Positions 30,382 to 36,470 of a stretch of DNA of 40,280 bases are shown in pieces; position 1 is the first letter of the stretch; the number at the start of each line of letters is the position of its first letter. A program made the translations under genes and the position numbers. This stretch comes from Castellaniella sp. GTDB taxonomy: Bacteria > Pseudomonadota > Gammaproteobacteria > Burkholderiales > Burkholderiaceae_B. The stretch covers positions 1-40,280 of the forward strand of contig JAHRWZ010000001.1 in the NCBI GenBank assembly GCA_019104865.1. The letters are read 5' to 3'. The notes beneath the pieces were generated by a model that ran no database searches, had not been told where the DNA came from, and saw only the letters and a program-made list of their open reading frames with translations.

Positions 30382-31797
30382 TCAGGCCACCGAGGGCGGC
30401 AGCATCTTGCCCGGATTGAGGGTGTTGCGCGGGTCCAGCGCTGTCTTTAGCGCGCGCATGACGTCGAGCGCATCGGCGCCGTGTTCCGCCTGCATGAAAA
30501 CCTGCTTGTGCAGACCCACGCCATGTTCTCCCGTGCACGTGCCTTCCATGGCGATGGCACGTTCGACCAGCCGGTGATTCAGGCGTTCGGACTCGTTCCA
30601 TTCGGCATCGCTGTCCGGATCCAGCAGCATCAGCACGTGGAAATTGCCGTCGCCCACGTGCCCCACGATGGTGTAGGGAAAAGGCGCGGCATCCAGTTCG
30701 CGCGCGGTCTCGCCCACGCATTCGGCCAGCCGGGAAATCGGCACACAGACGTCCGTCGTACTGGCGCGGCACCCGGGGCGCAGCTGCACGCCCGCGAAAT
30801 ACGCGTTGTGCCGCGCCGTCCACAGGCGGTTGCGGTCTTCCGGGCGTTCCGCCCAGTCGAAATCCTGGCCGCCAAGATCGCCCGTGATCTGCTGGACCAG
30901 TTCGGCCTGCTCGCGCACGCCTGCGGGGCTGCCGTGGAATTCGAACAGCAGCAAGGGCGATTCGCGCAGGGCCAGATGGCTGTAGCGGTTGGTGGCACGC
31001 ACGGCGCCGACGTCCATGAATTCCACCCGGGCGATCGGGACACCCATCTGGATGATCTGGATGACGCTGCGCACGGCCGAATCCAGATCGGGAAAATTGC
31101 AGACGGCGGCCGACACGGCCTCTGGCTGCGGATACAACCGCACCGTCACTTCGACAATAATGCCCAGCGTGCCTTCGCTGCCCACGAACAGGCGGGTCAG
31201 GTCGTAGCCCGACGAGGACTTGCGCGCCCGGTTGGCGGTTTCGATGATGCGCCCGTCGGCCGTGACGACCTTCAGGGACATGACGTTCTCGCGCATGGTC
31301 CCGTAGCGCACGGCGTTGGTGCCGGACGCGCGCGTCGCCGACATGCCGCCCAGACTGGCGTCCGCCCCCGGATCGATGGGAAAGAACAGGCCGGTTTCGC
31401 GCAAGGATTCGTTCAGCTGCTTGCGCGTGACGCCCGCCTGCACCGTGGCGGTGAAGTCTTCGGCATGTACGTTCAGGATCTTGTTCATGCCCGATAGATC
31501 CAGGCAAACCCCACCCTGCACCGCCAGCAGATGGCCTTCCAGCGAAGAACCCGCGCCATAGGGAATCAGGGCGATCCGATGGTCGTTGCAATGGCGCGCC
31601 ACCCAGGCGACCTCGTCCACGGACTGCGCGAACACCACGACGTCGGGCAGCATCGCCGGATAAGGCGACTCGTCACGGCCATGATGATCGCGCACCGGTT
31701 GCGCAGTCGAGCATCGCTCGCCAAATCGCTGCCGCAGGGTTGCCAGAAAGCCTTCCGGCAACGGTCGCGGCTGCTGTACCAAATGCAGTGTATCCAT
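30382..31797 (-). CDS. FAD-binding oxidoreductase, D-lactate dehydrogenase (cytochrome) type
   Basis: A 471-residue protein of the same FAD-oxidase superfamily as GlcD but a different subgroup (LDHD/Dld2-like). FAD motifs are IPYGAGSSLEGHLLAVQGG and PGADASLGGMSATRASGTNA, and the cap contains VGHVGDGNFHVLMLLD and GTCTGEHGVGLHKQ. It probably oxidises D-lactate or another D-2-hydroxy acid and passes electrons to the respiratory chain. ATG at 31797 gives the usual N-terminus. It sits between aroG (61 bp upstream) and glcD (15 bp downstream), with no terminator visible on either side. Substrate is inferred from family only. Confidence 0.88.
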   Translation of the reverse strand: MDTLHLVQQPRPLPEGFLATLRQRFGERCSTAQPVRDHHGRDESPYPAMLPDVVVFAQSVDEVAWVARHCNDHRIALIPYGAGSSLEGHLLAVQGGVCLDLSGMNKILNVHAEDFTATVQAGVTRKQLNESLRETGLFFPIDPGADASLGGMSATRASGTNAVRYGTMRENVMSLKVVTADGRIIETANRARKSSSGYDLTRLFVGSEGTLGIIVEVTVRLYPQPEAVSAAVCNFPDLDSAVRSVIQIIQMGVPIARVEFMDVGAVRATNRYSHLALRESPLLLFEFHGSPAGVREQAELVQQITGDLGGQDFDWAERPEDRNRLWTARHNAYFAGVQLRPGCRASTTDVCVPISRLAECVGETARELDAAPFPYTIVGHVGDGNFHVLMLLDPDSDAEWNESERLNHRLVERAIAMEGTCTGEHGVGLHKQVFMQAEHGADALDVMRALKTALDPRNTLNPGKMLPPSVA

Positions 31798-31858
31798 GTT
31801 CGATCCTGAAAACGGGATTCGTCGGGTCAACCGGATCGGGCGGCTGACAGGCAAGGCA

Positions 31859-32953
31859 TCAGGCGGCACTGCCGACCGATTCGCGATCGGCGGTGGCCAG
31901 CCGCTGACGACGCACGCGCACGGCAGCCGCCAGGCGATCCAGCAGCGCTACCGAGGTATCCCAGTCGACACAGCCATCGGTGATGCTCTGACCATACACC
32001 AGCGGGCGCCCCGGAACCAGGTCCTGACGGCCGCCCACCAGATGACTTTCGATCATGACGCCGAACAGGCGGGAATCCCCCGCCTCGACCTGCCGGCAGA
32101 TGTCCTCGACGACCTCGGGTTGGCGAGTGTAATCCTTATGGCTGTTGGCGTGGCTGGCATCCACCATGATGCGTGCGGGCATACCCGCCTTTTCCAGGGC
32201 CTGGGCCGCCGCCTGCACGTGTTCGGCCTGATAATTGGGGGCCTTGCCGCCGCGCAGGATGATGTGGCAGTCCTCGTTGCCGCGGGTGGACACGATGGCC
32301 GAATGGCCGCCCTTCGTCACCGACAGAAAATAATGGGAGTTCGATGCCGCTTTCATGGCGTCGATGGCGATGCGCGTATCCCCCGTCGTACCGTTCTTGA
32401 AGCCCACCGGGCACGACAGCCCGGACGCCAGCTCACGGTGCACCTGACTTTCGGTCGTGCGCGCGCCAATGGCCCCCCAAGACACCAGATCGGCAATATA
32501 TTGCGGCGTGATCATGTCCAGGAATTCGCAGCCGGCCGGCAGACCCAGCGCATTGATGTGGATCAGCAGTTCGCGGGCGGTGCGCAGGCCCTGGTTGATG
32601 TCGAAGCTGCCGTCCAGGCCCGGGTCGTTGATCAGTCCCTTCCAGCCGACTGTGGTGCGAGGCTTCTCGAAGTACACCCGCATGATGATCTCCAGATCGG
32701 CGGCGTACTTCTGGCGTTGTTCCACCAGCAGGCGGGCGTATTCCATGGCGGCCTTGGTGTCGTGAATGGAGCACGGCCCGATCACCACCACCAGGCGGTC
32801 GCTCTGGCCATACAGCACGTCGTGCACGGCATGCCGCGCATCATGCACGGTGCCGGAAATCGCCGGTGTGCAGGGAAACTCGCGCATCACGTGCGCGGGC
32901 GGCGCCAGTTCACGGATTTCCCGGATGCGGATATCGTCGGTATTGTGTGACAC
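31859..32953 (-). CDS. aroG: 3-deoxy-7-phosphoheptulonate (DAHP) synthase, class I, AroG type
   Basis: A 364-residue class I-alpha DAHP synthase, the first enzyme of the shikimate pathway (phosphoenolpyruvate plus erythrose 4-phosphate). It is very close to E. coli AroG: GPCSIHD with metal-ligand Cys61, RVYFEKPRTTVGWKGLINDP, IGARTTESQVHRELASGLSC and HIILRGGKAPNY. The extended N-terminus is the allosteric region of Phe/Tyr-sensitive enzymes. It starts with GTG at 32953, with GGAG upstream. Expression is predicted to be controlled by the Phe/Tyr leader peptide and attenuator described separately. Confidence 0.96.
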   Translation of the reverse strand: MSHNTDDIRIREIRELAPPAHVMREFPCTPAISGTVHDARHAVHDVLYGQSDRLVVVIGPCSIHDTKAAMEYARLLVEQRQKYAADLEIIMRVYFEKPRTTVGWKGLINDPGLDGSFDINQGLRTARELLIHINALGLPAGCEFLDMITPQYIADLVSWGAIGARTTESQVHRELASGLSCPVGFKNGTTGDTRIAIDAMKAASNSHYFLSVTKGGHSAIVSTRGNEDCHIILRGGKAPNYQAEHVQAAAQALEKAGMPARIMVDASHANSHKDYTRQPEVVEDICRQVEAGDSRLFGVMIESHLVGGRQDLVPGRPLVYGQSITDGCVDWDTSVALLDRLAAAVRVRRQRLATADRESVGSAA

Positions 32954-32994
32954 GGTCTTGCTCCAATCATGAATCCGGTGTTCAGGGCAGCAAC

Positions 32995-33026
32995 AAAAAA
33001 GCCGCCTGGCATCGCCGGCGGCTTTT
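32995..33026 (-). terminator. Attenuator terminator upstream of aroG
   Basis: Minus strand AAAAGCCGCC and GGCGGCTTTT arms form a 10-bp stem with a 10-nt loop and a run of six Ts, between the leader peptide stop and aroG. It forms the 3:4 hairpin of the attenuator. Readthrough is needed for aroG expression. Confidence 0.88.
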
Positions 33027-33117
33027 GGGGAATTTGTTGACTACCTGAATGTACAGCGATTCCCTTCCTCCACCAGCGGCTTCAGAAACGGAAAAAAATA
33101 AAAGAAATAGGGAATCG
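33014..33117 (-). promoter_or_regulatory. Phe/Tyr attenuator pairing elements of the aroG leader
   Basis: Region 1 (33117-33109, CGATTCCCT) lies in leader codons 3-6 and pairs perfectly over 9 bp with region 2 (33065-33057, AGGGAATCG). Region 2 can instead pair with region 3: GGGAAT with ATTCCC (33033-33028), extended by GCTGGTGG (33077-33070) with CCGCCGGC (33021-33014), eight pairs including two G-T wobbles. The latter overlaps the left arm of the terminator, so 2:3 pairing is an antiterminator. Ribosome stalling at the Phe/Tyr codons would cover region 1 and allow aroG expression. Confidence 0.75.
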
Positions 33118-33124
33118 AGTGCAT
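33041..33124 (-). CDS. aroG leader peptide, Phe/Tyr-rich (27 residues)
   Basis: A 27-codon frame (ATG at 33124, TAG at 33041) starting MHSIPYFFYFFPFLK: five Phe and two Tyr codons lie between codons 6 and 13. This is the pattern of amino acid biosynthetic leaders such as pheL. It is followed by a full attenuator and then aroG, whose product makes the precursor of Phe and Tyr. AGGA lies 8 nt upstream of the ATG, but the same bases look like a -10 box (see promoter). It is too short for normal gene finding. Confidence 0.8.
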   Translation of the reverse strand: MHSIPYFFYFFPFLKPLVEEGNRCTFR

Positions 33125-33130
33125 TGGATG

Positions 33131-33159
33131 ATCCTAGCACAACAAAAAGCGACAGGCAA
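33131..33159 (-). promoter_or_regulatory. Candidate promoter of the aroG leader
   Basis: Minus strand -35 TTGCCT (33159-33154), 17-bp spacer ending in TGC, extended -10 TAGGAT (33136-33131). The start would fall about 7 nt later, on the A of the leader ATG at 33124, so the leader would be translated without a ribosome binding site. An upstream promoter using AGGA as ribosome binding site is the alternative. Confidence 0.45.
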
Positions 33160-33358: not shown

Positions 33359-34219
33359 ATGAACACCTCCCTGAAATCCTGCCTGCTGGCCACTGCCGCC
33401 GCCAGCACGCTTGGCCTGGCCCCCACCGCCCAATCCGCCGATCTGGCCGCCATCCAGAAATCCGGTACGATCCGCATCGCCATCGCCAACGAGATCCCTT
33501 ATGGCTACATGGACCTGAATGGCCAGGCCAAGGGCGTCGGCCCCGATGTGGCAAAGCACATCGCCAAGGCCCTGGGGATCCCGAAGATCCAATGGACCAC
33601 CACCAGCTTCGGCTCGCTGATTCCAGGCCTGCAGGCGGATCGCTATGACATGGTGGCCGCCGAGATGGCGATCCTGCCGCAACGCTGCCAGCAGGTCGCC
33701 TTCTCGGAACCTGATAGCTCCTATGGCGAAGGCCTGCTGGTCGCCAAGGGCAACCCCGAGAATCTCCATGACTATGGCAACTTCGCCAAATCAGGCCACA
33801 AGATCGCCATCATGGCGGGTGCCGACCAGCTGGAGATGCTGCAAGCGCTGAAAGTTCCGGCGGACCGGATCGTCACCATCGCCAATAACGCCGACGCCAT
33901 TGCGACGGTCTCCACCGGCCGGGCGGCTGGCTACGCCGCCACCAGCCTGACCGTCAGTCAGCTGGCTACAAAGGGCAAGGGCAAGGTCGAAGCCGCCAGA
34001 GACTTCAAGGATCCGGTCATCAACGGCCAGCCGGTCCGCAGCTGGGGGGGCTTCACTTTTTCCCGGGATTCCGCAAAGCTGCGCGAGGCCGTCAACCAGG
34101 AACTGGCCAAGTTCAAGAAGACGGACACATGGAAACAGATCATGACCCAGTACGGGTTCTCGAGCGAGGACGCCTCGCAATCCTTCCAGCGCACCACGGC
34201 GCAGCTGTGCAAGGGCTGA
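33359..34219 (+). CDS. ehuB: Ectoine/hydroxyectoine ABC transporter substrate-binding protein EhuB
   Basis: A 286-residue periplasmic binding protein of the amino acid (family 3) type, with a Sec signal peptide cleaved near residue 27. The mature protein contains IRIAIANEIPYGYMDLNG, DRYDMVAAEMAILPQRC and FSEPDSSYGEGLLVAKGNP, which match what I recall of EhuB. It delivers ectoine or 5-hydroxyectoine to EhuCD. CAGGAG precedes the ATG. First gene of ehuBCDA, behind a consensus promoter, and convergent with ectoine synthesis genes, which supports the substrate. Confidence 0.87.
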   Translation: MNTSLKSCLLATAAASTLGLAPTAQSADLAAIQKSGTIRIAIANEIPYGYMDLNGQAKGVGPDVAKHIAKALGIPKIQWTTTSFGSLIPGLQADRYDMVAAEMAILPQRCQQVAFSEPDSSYGEGLLVAKGNPENLHDYGNFAKSGHKIAIMAGADQLEMLQALKVPADRIVTIANNADAIATVSTGRAAGYAATSLTVSQLATKGKGKVEAARDFKDPVINGQPVRSWGGFTFSRDSAKLREAVNQELAKFKKTDTWKQIMTQYGFSSEDASQSFQRTTAQLCKG

Positions 34220-34226
34220 ATGACCC

Positions 34227-34898
34227 ATGGACTGGCTGTCGTACCTGCCGCCGCTGCTGACGGGCGCCCGCGTCACCATCGAACTGACGGTGTACTCCAC
34301 CGTGCTGGGGGCGCTGTTTGCCTTTCTCTTCGGCATCGGACGTCTGTCGCGGTCCCGGGCCTGTCGGTGGACCTCGATCTGCGTGATCGAGGTCTTTCGC
34401 GGGACATCCCTGCTGGTTCAGCTCTTCTGGCTGTTCTTCGCCCTGCCGGTCCTGGGCCAGGCGCTGGGCATTGACCTGCGGCTGCCGCCGGTCGCTGCCG
34501 GAACCCTGGCGCTGGCCCTGAATATCGGCGCCTATGGCGCCGAGGTGGTCCGGGGCGCCATCCAGGCAGTACCGCTGAACCAGCACGAGGCGGCAAAGGC
34601 CCTGGATTTCACGCCCCGGCAAACCCTCTGGCGCATCTGCATCCCGCAGGCGGTCCCGGAGATGTTGCCCAGCTTCAGCAACCTGGCCGTCCAGAATCTG
34701 AAGGACACTGCGCTGGTGTCGCTGATCGGCCTGGGCGATATGGCCTTCCAGGCCGAACGCATCCGCAACTTCACGCAGGACAGCGTTTCGGTCTATACCC
34801 TTCTGCTGCTGATGTATTTCGGCATGGCCCTGGTCCTGGCCGCCGGCATGCACGTCCTGGAAGGGCGTGTCGGCCGCTGGCGAGTGGGAAGGAGCTAG
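34227..34898 (+). CDS. ehuC: Ectoine/hydroxyectoine ABC transporter permease EhuC
   Basis: A 223-residue permease of the polar amino acid (HisMQ/GlnP) family with about five membrane helices. ELTVYSTVLGALFAF begins the core, FRGTSLLVQLFWLFFALP is the conserved entry, and the EAA loop is HEAAKALDFTPRQTLWRICIPQAVPEMLP. It pairs with EhuD to form the channel. It starts 7 bp after ehuB and ends 2 bp before ehuD. Confidence 0.87.
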   Translation: MDWLSYLPPLLTGARVTIELTVYSTVLGALFAFLFGIGRLSRSRACRWTSICVIEVFRGTSLLVQLFWLFFALPVLGQALGIDLRLPPVAAGTLALALNIGAYGAEVVRGAIQAVPLNQHEAAKALDFTPRQTLWRICIPQAVPEMLPSFSNLAVQNLKDTALVSLIGLGDMAFQAERIRNFTQDSVSVYTLLLLMYFGMALVLAAGMHVLEGRVGRWRVGRS

Positions 34899-34900
34899 CC

Positions 34901-35596
34901 ATGCTGTTCGGCATCGAATGGAACACCGCCAACGACTGGACGTTCGCCTGGTCCATCCTGCCCATCCTGCTGCATGGGATGGTCGTGACCATCGAGGCGA
35001 CGTTGCTGGGCTTTCTGGTGGGTGCCGCGCTGGGCCTGGTGCTGGCCGGCCTGAAGGCTTCCCGGCTGCGCCTGATTGCCTGGCCGGCGCGCCTGCTGAC
35101 GGAATTCCTGAGGGACACCCCGCTGCTGGTCCAGCTGTTTTTCCTGTATTACGTGCTGCCGGAGTACGGTCTGGTGCTGTCCGCCTTCCTGACCGGCGCA
35201 CTGGCCCTGGGCGTGCAGTACAGCGCCTACATGTCCGAAGTCTATCGCGCCGGCCTGGAGTCGATCACGCAGGGCCAGACCGAAGCCGCCCGGGCACTGG
35301 ATATTTCTCCGCTGCGCACCTTCACTGTGATCATCCTGCCCCAGGCCATTCCACGGATCATCCCGGCGCTGGGCAACTATCTGGTATCCATCATGAAGGA
35401 TGTCCCCGTCCTGTCGGTGGTCTCGATCCTGGAAATGCTGAACGTCGCCCGCATCATCGGCGACCGCAGCTTCAACTACATGGTGCCCTTGACCATGGTC
35501 GGCGTGCTGTACCTGATCCTGACCCTGATCGCCGCAGCCGGCGTGCGTTATCTGGATAAACGGTTGCCCAAGCGCGGCATTCCGCTGCGCGGATGA
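34901..35596 (+). CDS. ehuD: Ectoine/hydroxyectoine ABC transporter permease EhuD
   Basis: A 231-residue permease of the same family as EhuC. It contains FLRDTPLLVQLFFLYYVLP, the EAA loop TEAARALDISPLRTFTVIILPQA, and a C-terminal helix ending in a Lys/Arg tail. A GGAAGGAG ribosome binding site lies before the ATG at 34901, inside the end of ehuC. It is the partner of EhuC. Confidence 0.87.
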   Translation: MLFGIEWNTANDWTFAWSILPILLHGMVVTIEATLLGFLVGAALGLVLAGLKASRLRLIAWPARLLTEFLRDTPLLVQLFFLYYVLPEYGLVLSAFLTGALALGVQYSAYMSEVYRAGLESITQGQTEAARALDISPLRTFTVIILPQAIPRIIPALGNYLVSIMKDVPVLSVVSILEMLNVARIIGDRSFNYMVPLTMVGVLYLILTLIAAAGVRYLDKRLPKRGIPLRG

Positions 35597-35639
35597 ACAT
35601 GGCCCCTGGCCCCTGGCCCCTTCCCCGATAAAGGAATCC

Positions 35640-36470
<831 letters not shown>

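What the first reader, a model, noticed from the sequence alone, without database searches (positions are those of the whole stretch)
32995..33124. Phenylalanine/tyrosine attenuator and leader peptide controlling aroG
A 27-codon frame with YFFYFFPF at codons 6-13 precedes DAHP synthase. All attenuator parts are visible: a 9-bp perfect 1:2 stem, a 2:3 antiterminator that overlaps the terminator arm, and a 10-bp 3:4 terminator with six Ts. Region 1 lies in codons 3-6, so a ribosome stalled at codons 7-13 would cover it, allowing antitermination when charged tRNA-Phe or tRNA-Tyr is scarce. This fits ribosome-mediated control of aroG. pheL is the known parallel, but I do not recall this exact arrangement for an aroG in this group.
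Basis: partly seen in the sequence, partly recalled or inferred. Interest (0 to 1): 0.75.

Follow-up and report, generated by a model that had tools for sequence, protein, structure and literature searches.

The report
Leaderless Phe/Tyr attenuator before aroG
Just ahead of the only gene found here for the first step of aromatic amino acid synthesis lies a tiny reading frame packed with phenylalanine and tyrosine codons and a terminator hairpin, which together are predicted to let a stalled ribosome switch the gene on when those amino acids run short; the same arrangement sits before this gene in most of the relatives examined, and in this family its message likely starts right at the start codon.

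Summary
In detail: leader frame 33124-33041 (-), 9-bp stem, 9-bp antiterminator core and 10-bp terminator with six Ts, before aroG (32953-31859, -). Comparison shows a conserved element. 94 of 110 aroG loci carry an aromatic-rich leader ORF (reverse strand 0 of 110), with a terminator behind each of the 89 distinct ones. Stem 1:2 covaries (0 of 10,000 permutations), as does 2:3 across wider lineages. Frameshifted or early-stop leaders keep the downstream RNA, so the tail is kept as RNA, not peptide. A conserved local hairpin holds the antiterminator strand. No Rfam, Pfam or NCBIfam model matched, and ten literature searches listed no report. In kind it is classical attenuation; target, spread and leaderless start make it a new variant. 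Stalling and readthrough are inferred, and an equilibrium model did not reproduce the OFF state.

The parts
33154..33159 (-). predicted -35 box TTGCCT, 17 nt from the -10 box
   Evidence: in 22 of 64 relatives the best-matching -35 word is TTGGCA
33131..33139 (-). predicted extended -10 box TG-C-TAGGAT; last base 6 nt before the leader ATG, placing +1 at or next to the A of ATG
   Evidence: 64 of 64 leaders of the Alcaligenaceae set have TGnTAnnnT ending 6-9 nt before ATG; shuffled mean 0.41, maximum 3
33041..33124 (-). leader peptide ORF, 27 codons, MHSIPYFFYFFPFLKPLVEEGNRCTFR
33086..33109 (-). control codons 6-13, YFFYFFPF
33109..33117 (-). strand 1, CGATTCCCT
33057..33065 (-). strand 2, distal part AGGGAATCG: pairs with strand 1, or by GGGAAT (33064-33059) with ATTCCC of strand 3
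33070..33078 (-). strand 2 core, CGCTGGTGG: antiterminator arm; also inside the conserved local hairpin
33028..33033 (-). strand 3, first part ATTCCC (same word as in strand 1)
33013..33021 (-). strand 3 core CCGCCGGCG, overlapping the terminator 5' arm
32995..33026 (-). intrinsic terminator: AAAAGCCGCC, loop, GGCGGCTTTT, six Ts
32961..32964 (-). GGAG, Shine-Dalgarno of aroG
   Evidence: strong SD before aroG in 64 of 64
31859..32953 (-). aroG, DAHP synthase type I-alpha, GTG start; the controlled gene
   Evidence: NF006723 569.9 bits; the only DAHP synthase found in the 89%-complete assembly

Best explanation
The conserved leader RNA before aroG most likely works as a transcription attenuator, in which a ribosome translating a Phe/Tyr-rich leader peptide, likely from a leaderless mRNA that begins at the leader's start codon, is predicted to decide between an antiterminator and a terminator. 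Inferred working: RNA polymerase would start at or next to the A of the leader ATG. If charged tRNA-Phe or tRNA-Tyr is scarce, the ribosome would stall in codons 6-13, cover strand 1 and leave strand 2 (CGCTGGTGG...GGGAAT) free to pair with strand 3 (ATTCCC...CCGCCGGCG), which includes the terminator's 5' arm, and aroG would be transcribed. If Phe and Tyr are plentiful, the ribosome would run to the stop codon, sit inside the antiterminator loop on GGGAAT and be released; the local hairpin and the long 1:2 stem would then hold strand 2, and the terminator would form. Shown here: the parts, their conservation, covariation of 1:2 and 2:3, the position of the -10 box, and a single DAHP synthase in the assembly. 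Inferred: promoter activity, the start site, stalling, and the change in readthrough.
For: Leader ORF in 94 of 110 aroG loci against 0 of 110 on the reverse strand and 0.25 on average in 20 shuffles (a few genomes occur twice among the 110). Terminator behind the ORF in 89 of 89 distinct stretches. Stem 1:2: own partners -14.35 against -10.92 kcal/mol for swapped, 0 of 10,000, with two null controls. 2:3 in 47 dereplicated leaders: 0 of 10,000, z -4.3. Local hairpin 99.0% of cells paired with compensatory changes; 0 of 500 shuffles reach the covariation score. L075 and L080 (frameshifted tail) and L040 (early stop) keep the aromatic run and the RNA of strand 2. Covariance model: one hit in the own genome; the 30 best loci of the order search all lie before an AroG homologue. 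Leaderless: 64 of 64 extended -10 boxes 6-9 nt before ATG, shuffled mean 0.41; strong SD 0 of 64 before the leader, 64 of 64 before aroG.
Against: No expression data. In an equilibrium model (37 leaders) mean P(2:3) before the terminator's second arm is made is 0.58 without a ribosome, 0.92 and 0.94 with one stalled at the first or middle aromatic codon, but only 0.60 at the last aromatic codon and still 0.88 at the stop codon; mean P(3:4) of the full RNA is 0.96-0.99 in all three states tried. So the OFF state is not explained by simple masking and needs steric or kinetic arguments. Within the 37-sequence alignment the 2:3 core is too conserved to show covariation (z -0.7 and -1.8). 31 of 64 leaders contain AGGA inside TAGGAT, which could act as a Shine-Dalgarno. 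One further family member outside the 64 (L118) lacks the -10 box at the start codon that I chose, and so do the Burkholderia, Ralstonia and Oxalobacteraceae loci. 15 of 110 loci have neither the aromatic ORF nor a significant model hit; one of them (L054) holds only 48 nt upstream.
Confidence: 0.85

Rival explanations
1. Ordinary, not leaderless, attenuator: the promoter lies further upstream and AGGA within TAGGAT is the Shine-Dalgarno of the leader.
For: AGGA 7-10 nt before ATG in 31 of 64 leaders; Burkholderia, Paraburkholderia and Ralstonia relatives have no such -10 box next to the ATG, so a leadered form of the element very likely exists; L118 in the own family lacks it too at the start chosen.
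Against: 33 of 64 have no such word (TAGAGT, TAGCAT, TAATAT, TATTGT and others) but keep the T, A, T and TG of an extended -10; a -35-like box is enriched at 16-18 nt (4.08 against 2.40 matches of 6). In B. cenocepacia leaderless genes carry a promoter motif in place of an SD (passages of PMC4603805).
Confidence: 0.13
2. The peptide itself is the product: a conserved small protein, or one that acts in trans as reported for peTrpL of Sinorhizobium.
For: PLVEEG or a close variant is common in the close family; a trans role of a leader peptide is reported (passages of PMC7298713).
Against: The tail is frameshifted in L075 and L080 and cut off in L040 while the RNA is kept; other lineages encode different tails whose RNA still pairs with strand 3. 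A trans role in addition is not excluded.
Confidence: 0.04
3. The terminator controls aroG without a ribosome: a protein- or ligand-bound leader, or a constitutive terminator.
For: A stable fold without ribosome (z -4.0), in which P(2:3) is intermediate (0.58).
Against: An open frame with an ATG and aromatic codons is kept in 94 of 110 loci, and within the run A falls on codon position 2 (mostly Tyr) in 265 of 323 cases (the frame was chosen for aromatics, so this is partly built in). No riboswitch or T-box match in Rfam at gathering score in the window or six relatives.
Confidence: 0.05
4. The terminated leader RNA works as a small RNA in trans as well as by attenuation.
For: Early termination would release an RNA of about 130 nt; rnTrpL of S. 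meliloti is such a case (passages of PMC7298713).
Against: No target was searched here; the conserved parts are accounted for by the cis switch.
Confidence: 0.1

Closest known systems
pheL attenuators of enteric bacteria (Rfam RF01859 Phe_leader)
   Same: Phe-rich leader peptide, mutually exclusive antiterminator and terminator, aromatic amino acid pathway (recalled for pheL)
   Different: Controls the DAHP synthase aroG, not pheA or pheST (their targets recalled, not tested); Tyr and in 38 of 119 leaders Trp codons as well; scores 17.4 bits against a gathering score of 55; predicted leaderless in this family; extra local hairpin
Leaderless trpL attenuator of Sinorhizobium meliloti (rnTrpL, peTrpL)
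   Same: Attenuator RNA whose 5' end is the leader ATG (passages of PMC7298713)
   Different: Tryptophan, trpE(G), Alphaproteobacteria; no sequence relation tested
E. coli aroF, aroG and aroH control by TyrR and TrpR (recalled)
   Same: Same enzyme family, end-product control of DAHP synthase
   Different: Repressor proteins there; a leader peptide and terminator here
Putative attenuators of aromatic genes in the Merino list (Table 7 of PMC1173090, passages)
   Same: Predicted attenuators before aromatic genes, including a Bordetella parapertussis operon holding pheA and tyrA
   Different: In the rows I saw the Bordetella entry is the gyrA-serC-pheA-tyrA unit, not a DAHP synthase with this leader; the table covers tyrA-linked operons only

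Membership tests
Ribosome-mediated transcription attenuator (class) | Short ORF with a run of codons for the pathway's end products | tested here: met
Ribosome-mediated transcription attenuator (class) | Intrinsic terminator between leader ORF and gene | tested here: met
   89 of 89 distinct stretches
Ribosome-mediated transcription attenuator (class) | Mutually exclusive antiterminator, maintained by selection | tested here: met
   2:3 overlaps the terminator arm; covariation in 47 dereplicated leaders; too little variation to test in the 37
Ribosome-mediated transcription attenuator (class) | Ribosome position switches between the two folds | tested here: inconclusive
   A stall at the first or middle aromatic codon favours 2:3 (0.92, 0.94); the stop-codon state is not separated by an equilibrium model (0.88)
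Ribosome-mediated transcription attenuator (class) | Readthrough rises when the cognate tRNA is uncharged | not testable with these tools
   needs an experiment
Rfam RF01859 Phe_leader | Covariance score at or above gathering (55 bits) | tested here: not met
   17.4 bits, E 1.6; six relatives: no match at gathering
Leaderless mRNA | -10 box directly before the start codon in place of an SD | tested here: met
   64 of 64 in the Alcaligenaceae set; L118 of the same family, outside the set, lacks it
Leaderless mRNA | Mapped transcript 5' end at the start codon | not testable with these tools
   no start-site data for these species were at hand

The most novel reading that the evidence does not exclude
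A single uncatalogued RNA device, recurring through the order of Burkholderia and Bordetella and in some neighbours, gates the entry to all aromatic amino acid synthesis by reading Phe and Tyr, and in about a third of leaders Trp, charging in one peptide; in Alcaligenaceae and in members of several other families it does so from a leaderless message whose start codon lies at the foot of the regulatory stem, so translation initiation on bare 70S ribosomes is part of the switch.
Probability: 0.5. Interest if true: 0.65.

Novelty: new variant of a known kind. Interest (0 to 1): 0.52.

Why it matters
In enteric bacteria DAHP synthases are held by repressor proteins (recalled). Here the pathway's single entry gene appears to be held by a leader peptide that reads several amino acids at once. 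If confirmed it gives a compact family recurring through the order (ready for an Rfam entry) for asking how one peptide integrates two or three tRNAs, and whether a leaderless message can support ribosome-paced attenuation. Related species that have the leaderless promoter, and others that lack it, offer a natural comparison.

Tried and rejected
Terminator pattern scan did not list the terminator, likely because of its loop limit. Rfam with a lax threshold gave only weak chance-like matches, Phe_leader among them. Plasmid collection: no match. Pfam (4 leader peptides) and NCBIfam (5): none. A covariation count on the MAFFT columns of the 2:3 core found too little variation, and so did swapping within the 37; a permutation test on wider lineages was used instead, which ignores tree structure, so its numbers are not exact probabilities. 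The outer 1:2 stem is misaligned by MAFFT because both strands vary, so it too was tested by swapping partners. The equilibrium model with a ribosome footprint did not reproduce the OFF state. Ten literature searches listed no paper reporting an aroG leader peptide in these bacteria; most listed hits were judged by title and abstract only, passages were looked up in six papers. Only open papers are held, and the known survey of attenuators in proteobacteria (Vitreschak and others 2004, recalled) was not seen. Supplementary tables, e.g. the 82 B. cenocepacia 5'UTRs that give short transcripts by processing or attenuation (PMC5688073, passages), could not be read and may contain this leader.

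Rows dropped before counts: alignment A1 and the 37-sequence tests leave out 5 of 42 dereplicated leaders (L012, L036, L039, L040, L062), left out of the alignment by me and not fitting the strand-2 motif; all five are in the wider test. That test took 130 leaders (of 145 aroG-bearing loci; ORF with 5 or more aromatics in ten), dereplicated to 47. The 64-leader set was defined by locus number (distinct leaders of L001-L052 and L082-L110), a proxy for close relation, not by taxonomy; two of its members (L012, L036) carry the label Burkholderiaceae. Of the genomes with a model hit only the 30 best loci were examined. In one search, of 9 hits, 7 lie before aroG (L111, L139, L141-L145) and 2 (L146, L147) do not.

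Full report
Setting. The window is contig 34 of a 3.46-Mb, 102-contig assembly, 89% complete. Among the named loci kept, the closest by AroG is Castellaniella caeni, 87% identical, so it is most likely a Castellaniella. aroG (32953-31859, -, GTG start) matches the NCBIfam equivalog for AroG (569.9 bits). The assembly has no match to type II DAHP synthase, and the second PF00793 gene is KdsA, so aroG is the only DAHP synthase found.

Observation. On the minus strand lie the 27-codon ORF 33124-33041, the 9-bp stem CGATTCCCT/AGGGAATCG, the antiterminator core CGCTGGTGG/CCGCCGGCG and the terminator AAAAGCCGCC/GGCGGCTTTT with six Ts. Among 1,057 ORF readings of 12-45 codons in the window this is the only one with 6 or more aromatics in ten residues. 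The 151-nt RNA folds better than 200 of 200 shuffles.

Conservation. I took up to 600 nt upstream of aroG from 110 loci: the window's own copy, 80 named contigs and 29 from the family search, where 259 of 268 genomes have the gene. A few genomes occur in both collections. An ATG-started ORF of 12-45 codons with at least 6 aromatics in ten residues is present in 94 of 110; the reverse strand gives 0 of 110, 20 shuffles 0.25 on average. 89 of the leader-bearing stretches are distinct, all 89 with a terminator between ORF and gene. Of the 16 without the ORF, L052 has a significant model hit (46.7 bits) and L058 a weak one, and L054 holds only 48 nt upstream. In the upstream sequences printed for six others (L027, L028, L043, L044, L046, L049) a coding sequence seems, by eye, to end shortly before aroG. 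Of 119 distinct leaders in the wider set all have Phe, 118 Tyr and 38 Trp.

Spread. A covariance model from 37 dereplicated leaders finds one place in the own genome and places in 112 of 399 genomes of the order at E 0.1 or better, 58 of them better than 0.001 by my count of the listing. The 30 best loci were examined, the window's own among them, and all 30 lie before an AroG homologue. In the class search 9 of 369 have a hit at E 0.01; 7 lie before aroG, 2 do not.

RNA or peptide. The aromatic run is kept as codons, but what follows is kept as RNA. In L075 and L080 the tail is read in another frame, and in L040 a stop follows the run, while the RNA of strand 2 stays. L042 has the same early stop; its RNA was not printed but fell within 90% of another kept leader in the dereplication. 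In other lineages the tails differ (KPQAV, RAIGGG, TPKAAG and others) yet the RNA still pairs with strand 3.

Covariation. Swapping partners between 37 loci: for stem 1:2 own partners average -14.35 against -10.92 kcal/mol, 0 of 10,000 permutations as good; two unrelated strand pairs give z 0.3 and -0.9. The 2:3 strands barely vary in this set (z -0.7 and -1.8; column counts). In 47 dereplicated leaders from wider lineages 2:3 gives -20.87 against -19.35, 0 of 10,000. A local hairpin over CUUUUCC..GCCGCUGGU..GGAAGG is the best fold of that 31-nt stretch in the 37 loci (mean -10.6 kcal/mol; in L007 in another register); 99.0% of its cells are paired, with compensatory changes, and 0 of 500 shuffles reach its covariation score. 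The terminator is 98.9% paired and nearly invariant. Permutations ignore the tree; the null controls share the same tree.

Leaderless start. In 64 of 64 leaders of the Alcaligenaceae set TGnTAnnnT ends 6-9 nt before the leader ATG (shuffled mean 0.41, maximum 3). The hexamer varies as a -10 box does, not as a Shine-Dalgarno does. A -35-like word averages 4.08 of 6 matches against 2.40 in shuffles, most often TTGGCA, mostly at 17 nt. A strong Shine-Dalgarno (GGAG, GAGG or AAGGA) precedes the leader in 0 of 64 and aroG in 64 of 64. In the window the -10 TAGGAT is followed by six bases and then ATG, so +1 is predicted at the A. Of the order loci outside the family, 7 of 21 (L128, L130, L134, L135, L137, L138, L139 of L120-L140), and L145, have the same arrangement at 6-10 nt; they belong to three unnamed families. 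The Burkholderia, Paraburkholderia, Caballeronia, Ralstonia and Oxalobacteraceae loci do not have it, nor does L118, a family member outside the 64, at the start I chose. Leaderless messages are documented in B. cenocepacia and Cupriavidus (passages of PMC4603805, and PMC7563307), and a leaderless attenuator in S. meliloti (passages of PMC7298713).

How it would work. Strands 1 and 3 both contain ATTCCC and compete for GGGAAT in strand 2. A ribosome stalled in the run would remove strand 1; mean P(2:3) before the terminator's second arm is made is then 0.92 (first aromatic codon) or 0.94 (middle), against 0.58 without a ribosome; at the last aromatic codon, where the footprint reaches strand 2, it falls to 0.60. 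With a ribosome at the stop codon the model still gives 0.88, because the core of strand 2 emerges just upstream of the footprint. My reading, inferred, is that this ribosome sits in the antiterminator loop on GGGAAT while the local hairpin holds the core, and that its release lets the long 1:2 stem close; the model does not include steric or kinetic effects. This is the weakest step.

Known or not. Rfam's Phe_leader scores 17.4 bits against a gathering score of 55; six relatives give no Rfam match at gathering score; the leader peptides tried have no Pfam or NCBIfam match. Ten searches of open papers listed no report (calls under Tried and rejected). Naville and Gautheret 2010 has no occurrence of aroG or DAHP in its main text (PMC2965389, term search). 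I therefore call it a new variant of ribosome-mediated attenuation, with moderate interest: the principle is classical; the target, the spread and the leaderless start are new to me.

Noticed in passing
30382-31869 (-): A GlcD-like FAD-linked oxidase gene overlaps the end of aroG by 11 bases, so it is probably co-transcribed and under the same attenuator. A relative is found in 83 of the 145 aroG-bearing loci, 5 of these at only 29-31% identity; adjacency was not checked and flanks are short.
   Followed up: partly
33359-36470 (+): A divergent amino-acid-type ABC transporter starts upstream of the leader. The binding protein exceeds the EhuB model (273.8 against a 190.9-bit cut-off); the two permeases and the ATPase are named by eye from the ORF list.
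   Followed up: no
L040 1276-1422 and L042: Advenella leaders end in a stop right after the aromatic run; in L040 the downstream switch RNA is kept: a natural test that the peptide tail is dispensable.
   Followed up: partly
L141-L143: Leaders from a family outside the order (f63) share TGTTATCAAT a few bases before the start codon, perhaps another leaderless promoter; in L143 the likely start is an internal GTG.
   Followed up: no
L027, L028, L043, L044, L046, L049: aroG loci without the leader; by eye a coding sequence ends shortly upstream of aroG, and the model finds no significant hit.
   Followed up: partly
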